Assembly: GCF_004795015.1 (NCBI RefSeq)
Contig: NZ_SSBI01000008.1
Location: 1 to 64,000 of the forward strand
Direction of reading: 5' to 3'
Source of the DNA: Streptomyces sp. A1277
Lineage (GTDB): Bacteria > Actinomycetota > Actinomycetes > Streptomycetales > Streptomycetaceae
DNA: 64,000 nt
Part shown: piece after piece, positions 31,660 to 36,630 of the stretch
Layout of the letters: every line of letters starts with the position of its first letter
Numbering within the stretch: position 1 is the stretch's first letter
The notes under the pieces: model-generated
The model's input: only the letters and a program-made list of their open reading frames with translations
Database searches by the model: none
Told to the model about the DNA's origin: nothing
Translations under genes and position numbers: made by a program

Positions 31660-32490
31660 TCACTTCTGCGCGGCGCGGGCGCGGCGCATCAGCAGGCCGC
31701 CACCGAGCACCATCGCGGCGCTGGCGCCACCGGCGATGCCCAGCTTGTCGTTGGTGCCGGTGTGCGCCATCTGCGGCGGCTTGTGGTGCTTGGGGGTGTG
31801 GTGCCAGGTGTGGGCCGGCGGGTTGTGCGGGTGCCACGCGTGGGTCGGCGGGTTGTGCGTGGGCGGGTTGTGCGTCGGGGGCTTGTGGTGCGTCGGCGGC
31901 TTGTGGTGCGGCGGCTTGTGGTGCACCGGCGGGGCCGGCGGCTTGTGGTGGTGTCCCGGAGGGCAGTTGTCGTCGTGGTGGTGCGGCGGCTTGTGCGTCG
32001 GGGGCTTGTGGTGCGGCGGCTTGTGCGGGGGGTTGTGGTGCGGCGGGTTCTCGACCTCGCCGCCACTGTTCTCGCACTCGTTGCCGGCGGCCGGGTTCAG
32101 CAGACCGACCACGTTGACACTGTTGCCGCAGACGTTGACCGGGATGTCGACCGGGGCCTGCACGACGTTGCCCGAGAGCACGCCGGGGGAACCGACGGCC
32201 ACTCCCTCGGCACTCGCGCCCTGGGTGTCGCCGGGGGCCGCGTCGCCGCCCTCGTTCTCGCACTCGTTGCCGAAGGCGGGGTTCAGCGCGCCGATCACGT
32301 TGACGGTGTTGCCGCAGATGTTGACCGGGACGTGCACCGGGACCTGCACGACGTTGCCCGACCCGACGCCGGGCGAACCGACAGCGGCGCCGTCGGCCGA
32401 GGCGTCGGCGAAGGCGTAGCCGCCGGAGGCGGTCAGGATGCCTGACGCCGCCGCCATGACGAGCACGCTTTTACTCAAGGCTTTTCGCAT
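31660..32490 (-). CDS. Long chaplin with two chaplin domains and sortase signal
   Basis: A 276-residue secreted hydrophobin-like coat protein. Signal peptide residues 1-29. Two chaplin domains follow (each with SPGVxSGNVVQxPVxxPVNxCGNxVNVxGxLNPAxGNECEN). Then comes an extreme His/Pro-rich linker of about 100 residues (PPHHKPPTHKPP-type repeats with a lone Cys in DDNCPPGHHH) and a C-terminal sorting signal MAHTG, hydrophobic stretch and RRARAAQK tail. Streptomyces long chaplins normally carry LAXTG for class E sortase; here the Leu is Met. It anchors to the cell wall and nucleates the aerial coat. ATG 32490 has GGAAGG. Confidence 0.93.
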   Translation of the reverse strand: MRKALSKSVLVMAAASGILTASGGYAFADASADGAAVGSPGVGSGNVVQVPVHVPVNICGNTVNVIGALNPAFGNECENEGGDAAPGDTQGASAEGVAVGSPGVLSGNVVQAPVDIPVNVCGNSVNVVGLLNPAAGNECENSGGEVENPPHHNPPHKPPHHKPPTHKPPHHHDDNCPPGHHHKPPAPPVHHKPPHHKPPTHHKPPTHNPPTHNPPTHAWHPHNPPAHTWHHTPKHHKPPQMAHTGTNDKLGIAGGASAAMVLGGGLLMRRARAAQK

Positions 32491-32760
32491 TGGGGCCCTT
32501 CCTTGGGACATTTCTCGCGAACGCGCGGCCGCAGTTCGTTCGTCAGGCGGTGCAGCAGCCGTCAGTTCCGACCGTGATGCTTGGGGGAGCCTCCCGGCGG
32601 GCGAGCTTGACGACACCCATAACGACGCCTGCGTGCGCGAGAAACGTGAAACCAGTGAATTTTCTGTGATCACCCGTACGGGCTACGCGTAAGGGAGACG
32701 CTGTCGATTTCCGTCAGTATGTCCCGATCGCTTTCGCACGGGCGTCCGCCACTTCCTGGC
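32491..32760. other. Divergent promoter region between long chaplin and first rodlin
   Basis: 358 bases separate the two divergent genes; this is the part outside the rodlin promoter module. No protein-coding feature is convincing. On the minus strand CGGAAC-N16-GCCTGA is a weak match to a sigma-BldN-type promoter for the chaplin. The rest is unassigned. Confidence 0.4.
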
Positions 32761-32814
32761 ATTCGGGTGAATGGTGATAACCAAACGTCCGGGGACGAGT
32801 TGGGCAGGGCGCTC
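32761..32814 (+). promoter_or_regulatory. Rodlin promoter module 1 (sigma-BldN-like)
   Basis: ATTCGGGTGA, then GATAAC (32776-32781), 16 bases, and AGTTGG (32798-32803). The hexamers resemble the sigma-BldN consensus as I recall it (CGTAAC-N16-CGTTGA), known to drive rodlin and chaplin genes in Streptomyces venezuelae. The TTCGGGTG element starts 36 bases ahead of the -10-like hexamer, exactly as in modules 2 and 3. Confidence 0.6.
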
Positions 32815-32848
32815 CGGTACGGGGCTCCCAGTACGAGAAGGGTTCATC

Positions 32849-33250
32849 GTGATCAAGAAGGTCCTGGCTACGGGTGCTGTCGCCGCCTCCATCCTCGGGC
32901 TCGGCGCCGCGCAGGCGATGGCCATCGGCAACGACGGCGGCACGACCTCCGTGAACGGCAACGGCGCCTCGCAGTCCTTCGGCAACGCCGTGACGCACGG
33001 CGATGGCAGCCCGCAGTTCGACCTGGTCCAGGGCTCGCTGAACAAGCCCTGCGTCGGCCTGCCGCTCAAGGCCAACGTCGGTTCACTCATCGGTGTCGTC
33101 CCGATTACGGTCCAGGACGTCAACGTCCTGTCCAACCCGCAGAACCAGCAGTGCACCGAGAACTCCACCCAGGCCAAGGGCGACGAGCCGCTGTCGCACA
33201 TCCTGGACAACATCCCGGTCCTGTCGGGCAACGGCGCCGGCAACCGCTGA
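32849..33250 (+). CDS. Rodlin protein (1)
   Basis: A 133-residue secreted rodlin, component of the paired-rodlet layer on aerial hyphae and spores. Signal peptide residues 1-25 (VIKKVLATGAVAASILGLGAAQAMA). The mature part has the diagnostic IGNDGGTTSVNGNGASQSFGN, LVQGSLNKPCVGLPLKANVGSLIGVVPITVQDVNVLSNPQNQQC and ENSTQAKGDEPLSHILDNIPVLSGNG blocks with two conserved Cys. GTG 32849 is preceded by GAAGGG. One of three rodlin genes here; S. coelicolor has two. Confidence 0.93.
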   Translation: MIKKVLATGAVAASILGLGAAQAMAIGNDGGTTSVNGNGASQSFGNAVTHGDGSPQFDLVQGSLNKPCVGLPLKANVGSLIGVVPITVQDVNVLSNPQNQQCTENSTQAKGDEPLSHILDNIPVLSGNGAGNR

Positions 33251-33263
33251 TCCGGCCGTCACC

Positions 33264-33306
33264 AGGCCCGGGCCGCCGGCGTTCCTCCTCCGAGCGGCCC
33301 GGGCCT
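33264..33306 (+). terminator. Terminator after rodlin 1
   Basis: A perfect 13-bp stem AGGCCCGGGCCGC / GCGGCCCGGGCCT with a 17-base loop just after the rodlin stop. Confidence 0.75.
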
Positions 33307-33536
33307 GCTGCTGCCCCACACGTCCGGCCGGAATCGAATGATTCCAGCGGGAACGTCGGCCGCTGACTGGAACTGCATCATTCGGGCGGTCTTCGAAGAA
33401 TCTTCTGGTTGAAGAGTTTCGCTTACCGTCCGAAATCGTTACGAATGACAACGGCGGGGTCACGAGCGATCAGGTCCGCGCTCGTGCGGCACGAAAGCCG
33501 TGGCCGCTCCGGACTCCGCCGAAGAAAGGGTTTCAC

Positions 33537-33770
33537 GTGAAGTACACCAAGATCGCCGCCGTCGCCGCCGGTACCCTCATGGCCATGGGTGCCGCTGCCC
33601 CGGCCTTCGCCGACTCCGGCGCCGAGGGTGCCGCCGTCAACTCCCCGGGCGTCCTGTCCGGCAACGTCGTCCAGGTTCCGATTCACATCCCGGTGAACGT
33701 CTGCGGCAACACCATCGACATCATCGGCCTGCTGAACCCGGCCTTCGGCAACGTCTGCGCCAACGACTGA
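33537..33770 (+). CDS. Short chaplin
   Basis: A 77-residue short chaplin: signal peptide 1-25 (MKYTKIAAVAAGTLMAMGAAAPAFA) and one chaplin domain DSGAEGAAVNSPGVLSGNVVQVPIHIPVNVCGNTIDIIGLLNPAFGNVCAND with the two Cys found in ChpF-H types. It self-assembles into amyloid-like fibrils at air-water interfaces and is organised by rodlins. Monocistronic, with its own terminator. GTG/ATG start ATG? The codon read is GTG-preceded ATG-equivalent at 33537 (GTGAAGTAC), following GAAAGGG. Confidence 0.94.
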   Translation: MKYTKIAAVAAGTLMAMGAAAPAFADSGAEGAAVNSPGVLSGNVVQVPIHIPVNVCGNTIDIIGLLNPAFGNVCAND

Positions 33771-33800
33771 TTCACCCCCGCCGAATTCTTCTCGGCACCG

Positions 33801-33837
33801 AAGGCCCCGGAGCGCACTCCCCGCGTTCCGGGGCTTT
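33801..33837 (+). terminator. Terminator after the short chaplin
   Basis: A 15-bp stem (AAGGCCCCGGAGCGC with GCGTTCCGGGGCTTT, including G-T pairs) about 30 bases after the stop codon, ending in TTT. Confidence 0.75.
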
Positions 33838-34005
33838 CCCGTGCGCTCCGGAACCCGGGATTTCGAGAAAGGCCGCGCCGTCCAGTTGCCCGGCCGCATT
33901 CGGGTCGTTAGTCAGGGGGAAAGCGGCAGAAGTCACGGCTAAAGAAGGCTCGTGCGGCGCGGGGACGCGACCGAAACAGACGCCGCTGCAGAAGGGAACC
34001 CGAAA

Positions 34006-34296
34006 GTGAAGTACGCGAAGACCGCCGCGCTCGTTGCCGGTTCCGTGGTTGCGCTCGGCACGGCTGCCCCCGCCTTCGCCGTCACCACCGCCACGGCCCC
34101 CAGCTTCAGCCTCGACGGAGGCGTCAACCAGGTGGTGGCGGCCGCTCCGCAGGCGGTCGACCCGGTCCTCGACACCGTCAGCGGCGCCGCCGACAACCTG
34201 CACGAGAACGGAACCGTCACCGAGGTCGCCGACCAGGCCACCGGAGCGGTGAAGGGTGCGGCGCCCCTGCTGGGCGGCCTCCCGCTCGCCCGCTGA
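34006..34296 (+). CDS. Small secreted protein with chaplin-like signal peptide
   Basis: A 96-residue protein from GTG 34006. The first 25 residues (VKYAKTAALVAGSVVALGTAAPAFA) closely resemble the signal of the adjacent short chaplin, but the mature 71 residues (VTTATAPSFSLDGGVNQVVAAAPQAVDPVLDTVSGAADNLHENG...) contain no chaplin domain, no Cys and are predicted largely helical and Ala/Val/Asp-rich. Located among chaplin and rodlin genes, so it may be another coat-associated protein. Function unknown. Confidence 0.82.
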   Translation: MKYAKTAALVAGSVVALGTAAPAFAVTTATAPSFSLDGGVNQVVAAAPQAVDPVLDTVSGAADNLHENGTVTEVADQATGAVKGAAPLLGGLPLAR

Positions 34297-34325
34297 CCTC
34301 GCACCGGCGGCGTGGCCCCCGCGCC

Positions 34326-34372
34326 GTTCGAGTGCGTACGCACCTTTCGAGTGTGCGCGCACCTTTCGGGTG
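34326..34372 (+). repeat. Three TTCGRGTG repeats at 19-bp spacing
   Basis: GTTCGAGTG (34326), TTTCGAGTG (34345) and TTTCGGGTG (34364) recur with a 19-bp period, close to two helical turns. The last copy is the conserved element of the rodlin 2 promoter. Looks like a multi-copy binding site for an activator. Confidence 0.6.
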
Positions 34373-34417
34373 AAGTGCCACAACCATTCCCGTCACGCCG
34401 AGTTGATCAGTGCGCTC
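34364..34417 (+). promoter_or_regulatory. Rodlin promoter module 2 (sigma-BldN-like)
   Basis: TTTCGGGTGAA, then CACAAC (34379-34384), 16 bases, AGTTGA (34401-34406), continuing TCAGTGCGCTC. Same element spacing as modules 1 and 3. Transcript would lead to rodlin 2 about 50 bases on. Confidence 0.65.
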
Positions 34418-34459
34418 GGCACCGGCGGGCATCACAGAGAAAACCAGAAGGGCAGTTTC

Positions 34460-34870
34460 ATGATCAAGAAGATGATGGCCTCGGCAGCCGTCGCCGCATC
34501 GATCGTCGGCGTCTCCGCCGCCGTCGCCCCGGGGGCCATGGCCATCGGCAACGACCAGGGCACCACGACGGTCAACGGCAACGGCGCCATGCAGTCGTAC
34601 GGCAACTCCGCCACCCACGGTGACTGGAGCCCGCAGTTCGCGCTCATCCAGGGCTCGCTCAACAAGCCCTGCATCGCCCTGCCGGCCAAGGCCAACGTCG
34701 GTTCCCTGCTCGGGGTCGTCCCGGTCACGGTCCAGGACGTCAACGTCCTGTCCTCGCCGCAGAACCAGCAGTGCACCGAGAACTCCACCCAGGCCAAGGG
34801 CGACGAGGCCCTGTCGCACATCCTGGACGACATCCCGATCCTCTCGGGCAACGGTGCCGCCAACGACTGA
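34460..34870 (+). CDS. Rodlin protein (2)
   Basis: A 136-residue rodlin: signal peptide MIKKMMASAAVAASIVGVSAAVAPGAMA, then IGNDQGTTTVNGNGAMQSYGN, LIQGSLNKPCIALPAKANVGSLLGVVPVTVQDVNVLSSPQNQQC and DEALSHILDDIPILSGNGAAND. ATG 34460 with GAAGGG. Differs from rodlin 1 mainly in the signal and in the GDWSPQFA stretch. Confidence 0.93.
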   Translation: MIKKMMASAAVAASIVGVSAAVAPGAMAIGNDQGTTTVNGNGAMQSYGNSATHGDWSPQFALIQGSLNKPCIALPAKANVGSLLGVVPVTVQDVNVLSSPQNQQCTENSTQAKGDEALSHILDDIPILSGNGAAND

Positions 34871-34938
34871 GCGGCTCCTGAACGGGTCCTGACACACGGG
34901 TAGTTCCCGGAGCGCCTCGTCCTTCCTGACGCACCTGT

Positions 34939-34992
34939 GGGGCCGGTGGGCCCGGGCAGCCGCATTGCCGGCCGCCCGGACCCGCCGGCCCC
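34939..34992 (+). terminator. Terminator after rodlin 2
   Basis: A long GC stem of 19 bases per arm with one mismatch (GGGGCCGGTGGGCCCGGGC / GCCCGGACCCGCCGGCCCC). Confidence 0.7.
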
Positions 34993-35108
34993 ATGTGCGT
35001 GTCCGGGGCGGGTGCGCACGCCCGTCCGCTCGCTCGAACGGGCGGCCCGCTGGGCCGGTTGCCGTAGCCGGGGCGGCGGGATTCCGCCGTAACGGGTAGG
35101 GCCTCCTC

Positions 35109-35288
35109 ATGGACCAGTACGACAGTCGGCACCCGGAAAGCGCCACCCCGATCTACGACCGGCTCCTCGCCGAGTGGCAGGCCGCGCGGGCCGACCCGGT
35201 CCCGGCCGAGCCCGCGGCGCCCGGCCCCTGTCGCACGGGCGGGTTCGTGCCCGCGGCGCGGAGCTCGGGCGAGGCCGGCCGGGGCTGA
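35109..35288 (+). CDS. Small conserved-looking protein (TPIYDRLLAEW motif)
   Basis: A 59-residue ORF from ATG 35109: MDQYDSRHPESATPIYDRLLAEWQAARADPVPAEPA... The TPIYDRL(L)xEW segment recurs, as I recall, in small streptomycete proteins of unknown function. Coding bias is right (G/C third positions) and the frame ends cleanly before the rodlin 3 promoter. No signal peptide. Function unknown. Confidence 0.6.
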   Translation: MDQYDSRHPESATPIYDRLLAEWQAARADPVPAEPAAPGPCRTGGFVPAARSSGEAGRG

Positions 35289-35322
35289 CGGCGGCCCGTC
35301 GAACTCATGCGGCATCCAACCC

Positions 35323-35376
35323 ATTCGGGTGGATCAGCGGAACCGAAACCTCCGCACGGTGTTGATCAGTACGTTC
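35323..35376 (+). promoter_or_regulatory. Rodlin promoter module 3 (sigma-BldN-like)
   Basis: ATTCGGGTGGA, then CGGAAC (35338-35343), 16 bases, TGTTGA (35360-35365), continuing TCAGTACGTTC. Element spacing identical to modules 1 and 2. Confidence 0.65.
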
Positions 35377-35404: not shown

Positions 35405-35815
35405 GTGATGAAGAAGATGATGGCCGGCGCGGCAGTAGCCGTGTCCCTGGTCGGCCTGTCGGCCGCCGCGGCCCCCTCGGCCATGGCGATCGGTAACGAC
35501 GGGGGCACGACGTCGGTCAACGGCAACGGCGCCGCCAGCTCGTTCGGCAACAGCGTGACCCGGGGCGACGGCAGCCCGCAGGCCCAGCTCATCCAGGGCT
35601 CGCTGAACAAGCTGTGCGTGGGTGCCCCGGTCAAGGCCAACCTGGGTTCGCTCGTCGGTCTCGTCCCGGTTACGGTCCAGGACGTCAACGTCCTGTCCAA
35701 CCCGCAGAACCAGCAGTGCGCCGAGAACTCCACCCAGGCCAAGGGCGACGAGTCCCTGTCGCACCTGGTGGACGACATCCCGGTCCTCTCCGGGAACGGC
35801 ATCGGCAACAACTGA
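35405..35815 (+). CDS. Rodlin protein (3)
   Basis: A 136-residue rodlin: signal VMKKMMAGAAVAVSLVGLSAAAAPSAMA, then IGNDGGTTSVNGNGAASSFGN, LIQGSLNKLCVGAPVKANLGSLVGLVPVTVQDVNVLSNPQNQQC and DESLSHLVDDIPVLSGNGIGNN. The GTG at 35405 aligns with the first codon of the other two; the ATG at 35408 is an alternative. Cys positions are conserved. Confidence 0.93.
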   Translation: MMKKMMAGAAVAVSLVGLSAAAAPSAMAIGNDGGTTSVNGNGAASSFGNSVTRGDGSPQAQLIQGSLNKLCVGAPVKANLGSLVGLVPVTVQDVNVLSNPQNQQCAENSTQAKGDESLSHLVDDIPVLSGNGIGNN

Positions 35816-36460: not shown

Positions 36461-36630
36461 GTCCGGCACCCTAACCGTCCGCGACCGGTCGAACTCCATG
36501 CGTATCACCCGATCGGGGGACGACTGGTGGCAAGTCGAGCCGGGCCGAATAATGCGTTGGCCGCCGGAGCACCGGGGGCTATGGTGTGGGACGAGACGGA
36601 CGGCGGACAGGCTGCCGGTGCCGGACACGG

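What the first reader, a model, noticed from the sequence alone, without database searches (positions are those of the whole stretch)
32761..35376. Fixed-spacing bipartite promoter module upstream of all three rodlin genes
Each rodlin gene has TTCGGGTG, an xxxAAC hexamer 14 bases after it starts, exactly 16 bases, then an (A/T)GTTG(A/G) hexamer. TTCGGGTG to the second hexamer is 36 bases in all three (32762/32798, 34365/34401, 35324/35360). The hexamers fit a sigma-BldN promoter. TTCGGGTG is an additional conserved element, tripled at a 19-bp period before rodlin 2, so it looks like the site of an unidentified activator of the rodlin regulon.
Basis: partly seen in the sequence, partly recalled or inferred. 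Interest (0 to 1): 0.72.

Follow-up and report, generated by a model that had tools for sequence, protein, structure and literature searches.

The report
BldM-type box on rodlin promoters
All three rodlet-coat (rodlin) genes of this Streptomyces carry the same short DNA box at a fixed distance in front of a predicted sigma-BldN promoter; in other Streptomyces the pair of box and promoter turns up almost only before coat-protein genes, and its sequence suggests that the box is likely bound by BldM, a developmental regulator that sigma-BldN is itself reported to switch on.

Summary
TTCGGGTG-N9-AAC-N17-GTTG occurs three times in the 7.33-Mb genome, each time at a rodlin (about 0.003 expected). 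The octamer is one form of a wider box. In an even 61-genome sample, 110 of 125 rodlin upstreams anchor to a sigma-BldN-like promoter; 85 of 110 have GRGTGR exactly 11 bases before the -35 hexamer, 13 the exact octamer. The relaxed module (CGRGTGA plus hexamers) matches 33 times, reversed control 4; 31 lie at rodlins and 2 at chaplins. The box fits the published BldM site and, genus-wide, the BldM-WhiI site (PMC4125116): the TGnnCCG half lies at the predicted register (2.93 of 5, shuffles 1.51, 0 of 5000), though its outer TG is not evident among near relatives. The divergent long chaplin carries a fuller BldM-type palindrome. The "unidentified activator" is thus probably BldM, with WhiI or as homodimer. 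The 19-bp triplication is local (2 of 200 promoters, window included). Binding and activation are untested; published BldM target tables could not be read here.

The parts
32755..32770 (+). rodlin 1 box, CCTGGCATTCGGGTGA, in the 16-bp BldM register (octamer at 32762-32769)
   Evidence: 9 of 14 Group I and 8 of 12 Group II consensus positions
32776..32781 (+). rodlin 1 predicted -35 hexamer GATAAC
32798..32803 (+). rodlin 1 predicted -10 hexamer AGTTGG
32849..33250 (+). rodlin 1 gene (GTG start)
   Evidence: NCBIfam rodlin_AB, E 2.8e-63
34327..34353 (+). two extra upstream TTCGAGTG copies (34327, 34346), 19-bp period, local to this lineage
   Evidence: present in 2 of 200 promoters (window and L004)
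34358..34373 (+). rodlin 2 box, CGCACCTTTCGGGTGA (octamer at 34365-34372)
   Evidence: 9 of 14 Group I, 10 of 12 Group II
34379..34384 (+). rodlin 2 predicted -35 hexamer CACAAC
34401..34406 (+). rodlin 2 predicted -10 hexamer AGTTGA
34460..34870 (+). rodlin 2 gene
   Evidence: NCBIfam rodlin_AB, E 2.7e-69
35317..35332 (+). rodlin 3 box, CAACCCATTCGGGTGG (octamer at 35324-35331)
   Evidence: 10 of 14 Group I, 8 of 12 Group II
35338..35343 (+). rodlin 3 predicted -35 hexamer CGGAAC
35360..35365 (+). rodlin 3 predicted -10 hexamer TGTTGA
35408..35815 (+). rodlin 3 gene (ATG; GTG at 35405 also possible)
   Evidence: NCBIfam rodlin_AB, E 2.3e-64
32670..32685 (-). BldM-type palindrome TAGCCCGTACGGGTGA upstream of the divergent long chaplin
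   Evidence: 12 of 14 Group I positions; a site of this kind found by pattern in 37 of 61 long-chaplin hits
31660..32490 (-). long chaplin gene, divergent from rodlin 1
   Evidence: Pfam ChpA-C, E 1.8e-54

Best explanation
The conserved box sits at a fixed distance upstream of the predicted sigma-BldN promoter of every rodlin gene in the window and is likely a binding site for the response regulator BldM, probably paired with WhiI, which would activate rodlin transcription together with sigma-BldN RNA polymerase. Shown here: the box, its fixed spacing, the near-exclusive occurrence of box plus promoter at coat-protein genes, and the fit in register to the published BldM and BldM-WhiI consensus. 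Inferred: the promoter-proximal half (CGRGTGA) holds BldM five bases from the -35 hexamer, where it could touch the polymerase, and the distal half (TGnnCCG) holds the partner. Because bldM itself lies behind a promoter of the sigma-BldN type, this would make a feed-forward circuit: sigma-BldN makes BldM, and both are then needed at the rodlins. Untested: binding, activation, transcription starts, and homodimer against heterodimer.
For: Exact module 3 times in the genome, all rodlins, 0 for the reversed pattern. Even sample: GRGTGR at one offset in 85 of 110 promoter-anchored rodlin upstreams (59 of 80 sequence clusters), at all other offsets together 9. Anchoring did not use the box; shuffled upstreams anchor in 5.25 of 125 on average (at most 9), with the box at that offset 0.05 times on average. 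Relaxed module: 33 matches against 4 for the reversed control; 31 at rodlins, 2 at Pfam ChpA-C chaplins. Fit to the BldM consensus at one register only: Group I mean 8.26 of 14 against at most 5.0 at other offsets, Group II 8.22 of 12 against at most 4.29. Distal half TGnnCCG in the 59 clusters with the box: 2.93 of 5 against 1.51, sd 0.13, 0 of 5000 within-sequence shuffles; TG at the predicted place in 17 of 59, at most 7 at any other offset; TC (Group I) in 2 of 59. In the proximal half, the bases that vary (Y and R of YGRGTGA) are those printed lower case in the published site TCACcCgnncGgGTGA (PMC4125116, passages). The divergent long chaplin has a similar column profile as a fuller BldM palindrome; best match 12 or 13 of 14 in 25 of 61 long-chaplin upstreams, reached by about 0.4% of shuffles. 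bldM, divergent from a WhiB-like (whiD-type) gene, follows CGTAAC-16-CGTTGA. Weak independent hints: in S. venezuelae without bldC, bldM falls, whiI rises about 20-fold and chp and rdl genes are not activated; they are given as an example among genes many of which are not direct BldC targets (PMC6428758, section 10 and passages). In S. coelicolor without mtrA, rdl induction is blocked (PMC5650626, passages), and MtrA activates bldM and whiI in S. venezuelae (PMC13189361, passages).
Against: PMC4125116 mentions rodlins three times in its main text, once in the introduction as sigma-BldN targets and twice in the reference list, not as BldM targets; its Tables S1 and S2 could not be read. The distal half is weak: the window's own boxes reach 8, 10 and 8 of 12 Group II positions, and in the nearer set of 54 clusters G at the second place of TG is at background (15 of 54), although T at the first is raised (20 of 54). 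BldM alone did not footprint the two Group II promoters tested in that paper (passage), so a poor partner half matters. The box has conserved bases outside the consensus (T or A at the central n positions, A after GTGA). 25 of 110 anchored promoters lack GRGTGR at the offset, and 15 of 125 upstreams have no anchored promoter. PMC6428758 says rdl genes come on at the onset of development, which fits the early homodimer group better than the late heterodimer group. The bldC and mtrA results can also be explained through sigma-BldN levels.
Confidence: 0.6

Rival explanations
1. The box is bound by a different regulator with a similar half-site (another NarL-type response regulator, such as RamR/AmfR, or an unknown one).
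For: Conserved central T/A and a trailing A are not in the BldM consensus; the outer TG is not evident among near relatives. RamR sites could not be compared: the one search held no paper.
Against: The published BldM-WhiI distal half appears genus-wide in exactly the predicted place, which an unrelated regulator would not predict; the long-chaplin version of the box is a fuller BldM palindrome.
Confidence: 0.25
2. The box is an extended part of the sigma-BldN promoter itself, read by the sigma factor or polymerase.
For: Its spacing to the -35 hexamer is fixed, and it is missing together with the promoter in at least 15 rodlin 2 copies of what I call the S. griseus group.
Against: The bldM p1-type promoter of this genome has no such box at that place. 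Of 15 matches of CGNAAC-N17-GTTGA in the genome (6 for the reversed control, so several are chance) only rodlin 3 and one other carry GRGTGR there. The long chaplin has the box with no sigma-BldN-like pattern in 330 bases upstream in 61 of 61 hits.
Confidence: 0.08
3. The box is a BldD half-site through which BldD represses rodlins in vegetative growth.
For: GRGTGA fits the right half of the BldD consensus TNACNCWGNGTNA (consensus recalled, not from a call).
Against: In the register that would use GRGTGA (offset -18) the mean is 4.21 of 9, and the best BldD score lies elsewhere (4.82 of 9 at offset -8); the long-chaplin palindrome has its axis where the BldM site has it.
Confidence: 0.04
4. 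The sameness is only shared ancestry of duplicated rodlin genes, without function.
For: Rodlins are paralogues, and clusters of related sequences are not fully independent.
Against: In 80 clusters across the genus the core columns (-11 to -5) hold 0.8 to 1.8 bits while the columns between box and hexamer hold 0.3 or less; two module matches lie before chaplins, not rodlins.
Confidence: 0.03

Closest known systems
BldM-WhiI (Group II) sites of Streptomyces venezuelae (PMC4125116)
   Same: CGGGTGA half-site, 16-bp register, TGnnCCG distal half at the predicted place in the genus-wide sample.
   Different: Distal half weak, and weaker still near the window; fixed to a sigma-BldN-type promoter 5 bases away; rodlins not named as targets in the main text passages read.
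BldM homodimer (Group I) sites, TCACcCgnncGgGTGA (PMC4125116)
   Same: Promoter-proximal half; near-complete palindrome at the divergent long chaplin.
   Different: The outer TC of the distal half is not enriched at rodlins (2 of 59 clusters).
Sigma-BldN promoters of rodlins, chaplins and bldM (Bibb 2012, paper not held; stated in PMC4125116)
   Same: xxxAAC-16-nGTTGR hexamers, as at the bldM p1-type promoter of this genome (CGTAAC-16-CGTTGA).
   Different: An added upstream box; transcription starts not mapped here.

Membership tests
BldM-WhiI Group II binding site | BldM half CGGGTGA | tested here: met
   GRGTG at the offset in 85 of 110 promoters; window rodlins 1 and 2 have CGGGTGA, rodlin 3 CGGGTGG
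BldM-WhiI Group II binding site | distal half TGnnCCG at fixed register | tested here: inconclusive
   Met as a group genus-wide: 2.93 of 5 against 1.51, 0 of 5000 shuffles. Weak in the window's three boxes (8, 10, 8 of 12 overall) and outer TG not evident in the nearer 54 clusters
BldM-WhiI Group II binding site | bound by BldM and WhiI in vivo; expression lost in bldM and whiI mutants | not testable with these tools
   needs ChIP or mutants; tables of PMC4125116 not readable here
BldM Group I (homodimer) site | palindrome TCACCCG-nn-CGGGTGA | tested here: not met
   At rodlins TC at the outer place in 2 of 59 clusters; window rodlins 9, 9, 10 of 14. The divergent long chaplin comes near: 12 of 14
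Sigma-BldN promoter | xxxAAC-16-nGTTGR hexamers | tested here: met
   all three rodlins; 110 of 125 genus-sample upstreams anchored with 15-17 spacing allowed, against 5.25 in shuffles
Sigma-BldN promoter | transcription start and sigma-BldN dependence | not testable with these tools
   stated for rodlins of S. venezuelae in PMC4125116, not tested here
BldD site | palindrome TNACNCWGNGTNA (recalled) | tested here: not met
   4.21 of 9 in the matching register, best 4.82 elsewhere

The most novel reading that the evidence does not exclude
The rodlin promoter is a genus-wide AND gate dedicated to the spore and hyphal coat: sigma-BldN polymerase fires only when a BldM-WhiI heterodimer, locked five bases upstream of the -35 hexamer, is also present. 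The rodlet layer would then be a point where the bld and whi pathways meet on one promoter.
Probability: 0.28. Interest if true: 0.7.

Novelty: new variant of a known kind. Interest (0 to 1): 0.52.

Why it matters
Rodlins and chaplins are described as direct sigma-BldN targets, with bldM as a separate target of the same sigma factor (PMC4125116, passage). A BldM-type site fixed to the rodlin promoters would make the coat genes a feed-forward circuit, and could explain why rdlA and rdlB peak late in S. coelicolor, like chpA and chpD (PMC5650626, passages). It turns "unidentified activator" into a named candidate that existing BldM ChIP-seq data can test at once.

Tried and rejected
A dyad inside the box (TTC-GGGT-GAA; CATTC-GGGT-GAATG in rodlin 1) looked attractive but is not kept: relatives with AAC before the core and GAA after it are seen (not counted). 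The literal octamer as the conserved unit was rejected (13 of 110). The 19-bp array as a general feature was rejected (2 of 200). BldM-type sites (11 or more of 14) were not above control upstream of the short chaplin chpH (1 of 81; 2.7% of shuffles) and only slightly upstream of the small gene at 34006 (5 of 58; 3.7% of shuffles); not pursued. The one further relaxed match in the own genome (C54:16839, L082) lies before an HMG-CoA-reductase-like reading frame (my reading of the translation) and was not pursued. Flanks of 24 of the 25 BldM-type palindromes found in the own genome were looked at: 18 of 24 lay outside long reading frames; I did not recognise whiB or ssgR among the neighbours, so that positive control is open. 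Paper searches: rodlin+promoter+BldN (43 papers, 25 listed), BldM+rodlin+chaplin+ChIP (14 papers), bldM+rdlA, rodlin+motif+sigma BldN, 'bldM mutant'+chaplin, rodlin+whiI+whiG (10 listed), CGGGTGA with rodlin or Streptomyces (159 held two of three terms, 8 listed). Passages or sections were seen in 12 papers only, and none of those seen says that BldM binds rodlin promoters; Bibb 2012 is not held.
Full report
The window lies on contig C104 of a 7.33-Mb genome, of the genus Streptomyces by its relatives. It holds a coat-protein cluster: a long chaplin on the minus strand (31660-32490), rodlin 1, a short chaplin (33537-33770), a small secreted-looking protein (34006-34296, no Pfam or NCBIfam family), and rodlins 2 and 3.

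Check of the observation. The octamer alone is not remarkable in the window (6 found, 2.56 expected), but the complete module occurs exactly three times in the genome, each time before a rodlin, with none for the reversed pattern; about 0.003 are expected from the window's base composition. With the degenerate core GRGTGR there are four matches, three of them the rodlins.

What is conserved. I took 78 related loci (the tool kept the best 80 of 371 relatives) and the window, found 224 rodlin stretches, kept 220, and placed the best sigma-BldN-like hexamer pair without looking at the box. 200 of 220 were anchored. GRGTGR stands 11 bases before the -35 hexamer in 179 of 200 (46 of 54 sequence clusters), the exact octamer 14 bases before it in 63 of 200. 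Because these loci are near relatives, I repeated this on an even sample of 61 genomes, own included, 44 of which have rodlins. Of 125 upstreams from the other genomes 110 were anchored (shuffled upstreams: 5.25 on average, at most 9). GRGTGR is at the same offset in 85 of 110 and the exact octamer in 13. Over 80 clusters the core columns (-11 to -5) hold 0.8 to 1.8 bits, while the four columns between box and hexamer hold 0.3 or less and those from -25 to -17 at most 0.43. So the box appears to be under selection, and it is wider and looser than TTCGGGTG: C-R-n-n-Y-G-R-G-T-G-A-A.

Specificity. The pattern CGRGTGA-N8-AAC-N17-GTTGR was searched in 61 genomes: 33 matches, 4 for the reversed control. 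31 of 33 are within 200 bases upstream of a rodlin, one of these a broken copy. The other two are in genomes (G027, G045) where one search found no rodlin, and both precede chaplins (Pfam ChpA-C, E 1.1e-44 and, weakly, 7.4e-05). All 33 are therefore at coat-protein genes.

Which regulator. PMC4125116 (abstract, passages, Results part 1 of 2, sections 18 and 30 read) reports the BldM homodimer site TCACcCgnncGgGTGA and the BldM-WhiI heterodimer site TGnnCCGnnCGGGTGA. The rodlin box fits both at one register only. In the genus sample the half that tells them apart favours the heterodimer: TG at the predicted place in 17 of 59 box-bearing clusters, TC in 2 of 59; the whole distal half scores 2.93 of 5 against 1.51 in shuffles, 0 of 5000 reaching it. 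The consensus came from the paper, not from these data, so this is a fair test, though the clusters are not fully independent. Against it, in the nearer set (54 clusters, the window among them) G at the second place is at background (15 of 54) while T at the first is raised (20 of 54).

The divergent long chaplin. Its upstream region in the window carries a BldM-type palindrome (32670-32685, minus strand, 12 of 14 Group I positions). Among 61 long-chaplin hits in the related loci, 25 have a best match of 12 or 13 of 14 (about 0.4% of shuffles reach 12), and 37 have a site of this kind by pattern, with a column profile close to the rodlin box; in some species it reads like a rodlin box, e.g. 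CCATTCGAGTGA in L024. Downstream lies a conserved promoter-like pair that is not of the xxxAAC type. The short chaplin has no such site above control.

BldM in this genome. A 203-residue response regulator gene, closest to NarL-type models and divergent from a WhiB-like gene as bldM is from whiD in S. venezuelae (PMC13189361, passages), lies behind CGTAAC-16-CGTTGA. That it is BldM rests on this neighbourhood and on recall of the sequence. Its promoter has no box at the rodlin offset.

Mechanism. I commit to BldM at the promoter-proximal half-site, probably with WhiI on the distal half, acting next to sigma-BldN polymerase. Shown: sequence, spacing, conservation, specificity of the module, consensus fit. 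Inferred: binding, activation, heterodimer. Hints from papers: in an S. venezuelae bldC deletion bldM is down, whiI up about 20-fold, and chp and rdl genes are not activated (PMC6428758, section 10 and passages); in S. coelicolor without mtrA the rdl genes are not induced (PMC5650626, passages). Changed sigma-BldN levels could explain both. Against the heterodimer: PMC6428758 says rdl genes come on at the onset of development. For a late role: in S. coelicolor rdlA and rdlB peak at the last time points, like chpA and chpD (PMC5650626, passages).

Limits. The BldM target tables and Bibb 2012 could not be read, so rodlins may already be listed there; then this would be a rediscovery with new comparative support. 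Transcription starts are not mapped. The window's own three boxes are modest matches singly; the case rests on the group.

Noticed in passing
G000 contig C23:135471-135498 (L110, L222): The bldM p1-type promoter has TTCGAGTGA between its -35 and -10 hexamers, in a BldM-like register (TAACTCTTTCGAGTGA); it could serve BldM autorepression.
   Followed up: no
window 32619-32645, minus strand: The long chaplin has a conserved GTTTCC/T-N15-16-CGTTAT promoter-like pair, unlike the sigma-BldN pattern, suggesting another sigma factor.
   Followed up: partly
L014, L016, L017, L033 and others of the S. griseus group (my label), rodlin 2: At least 15 rodlin 2 copies have lost both box and promoter; in L016 the gene starts about 70 bases after the small gene ends, as if cotranscribed with it.
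   Followed up: partly
window 34006-34296: Small predicted secreted protein without Pfam or NCBIfam family; 58 hits in the 79 sequences searched, all fetched around rodlins, so its link to the cluster is by construction.
   Followed up: partly
G000:C54:16839-16877 (L082): A sigma-BldN-like promoter with GAGTGG at the box position lies before an HMG-CoA-reductase-like reading frame.
   Followed up: no
window 36505-36520: A BldM-type palindrome with one mismatch (TCACCCGATCGGGGGA) lies within 1 kb downstream of rodlin 3; its flanks were not examined.
   Followed up: no
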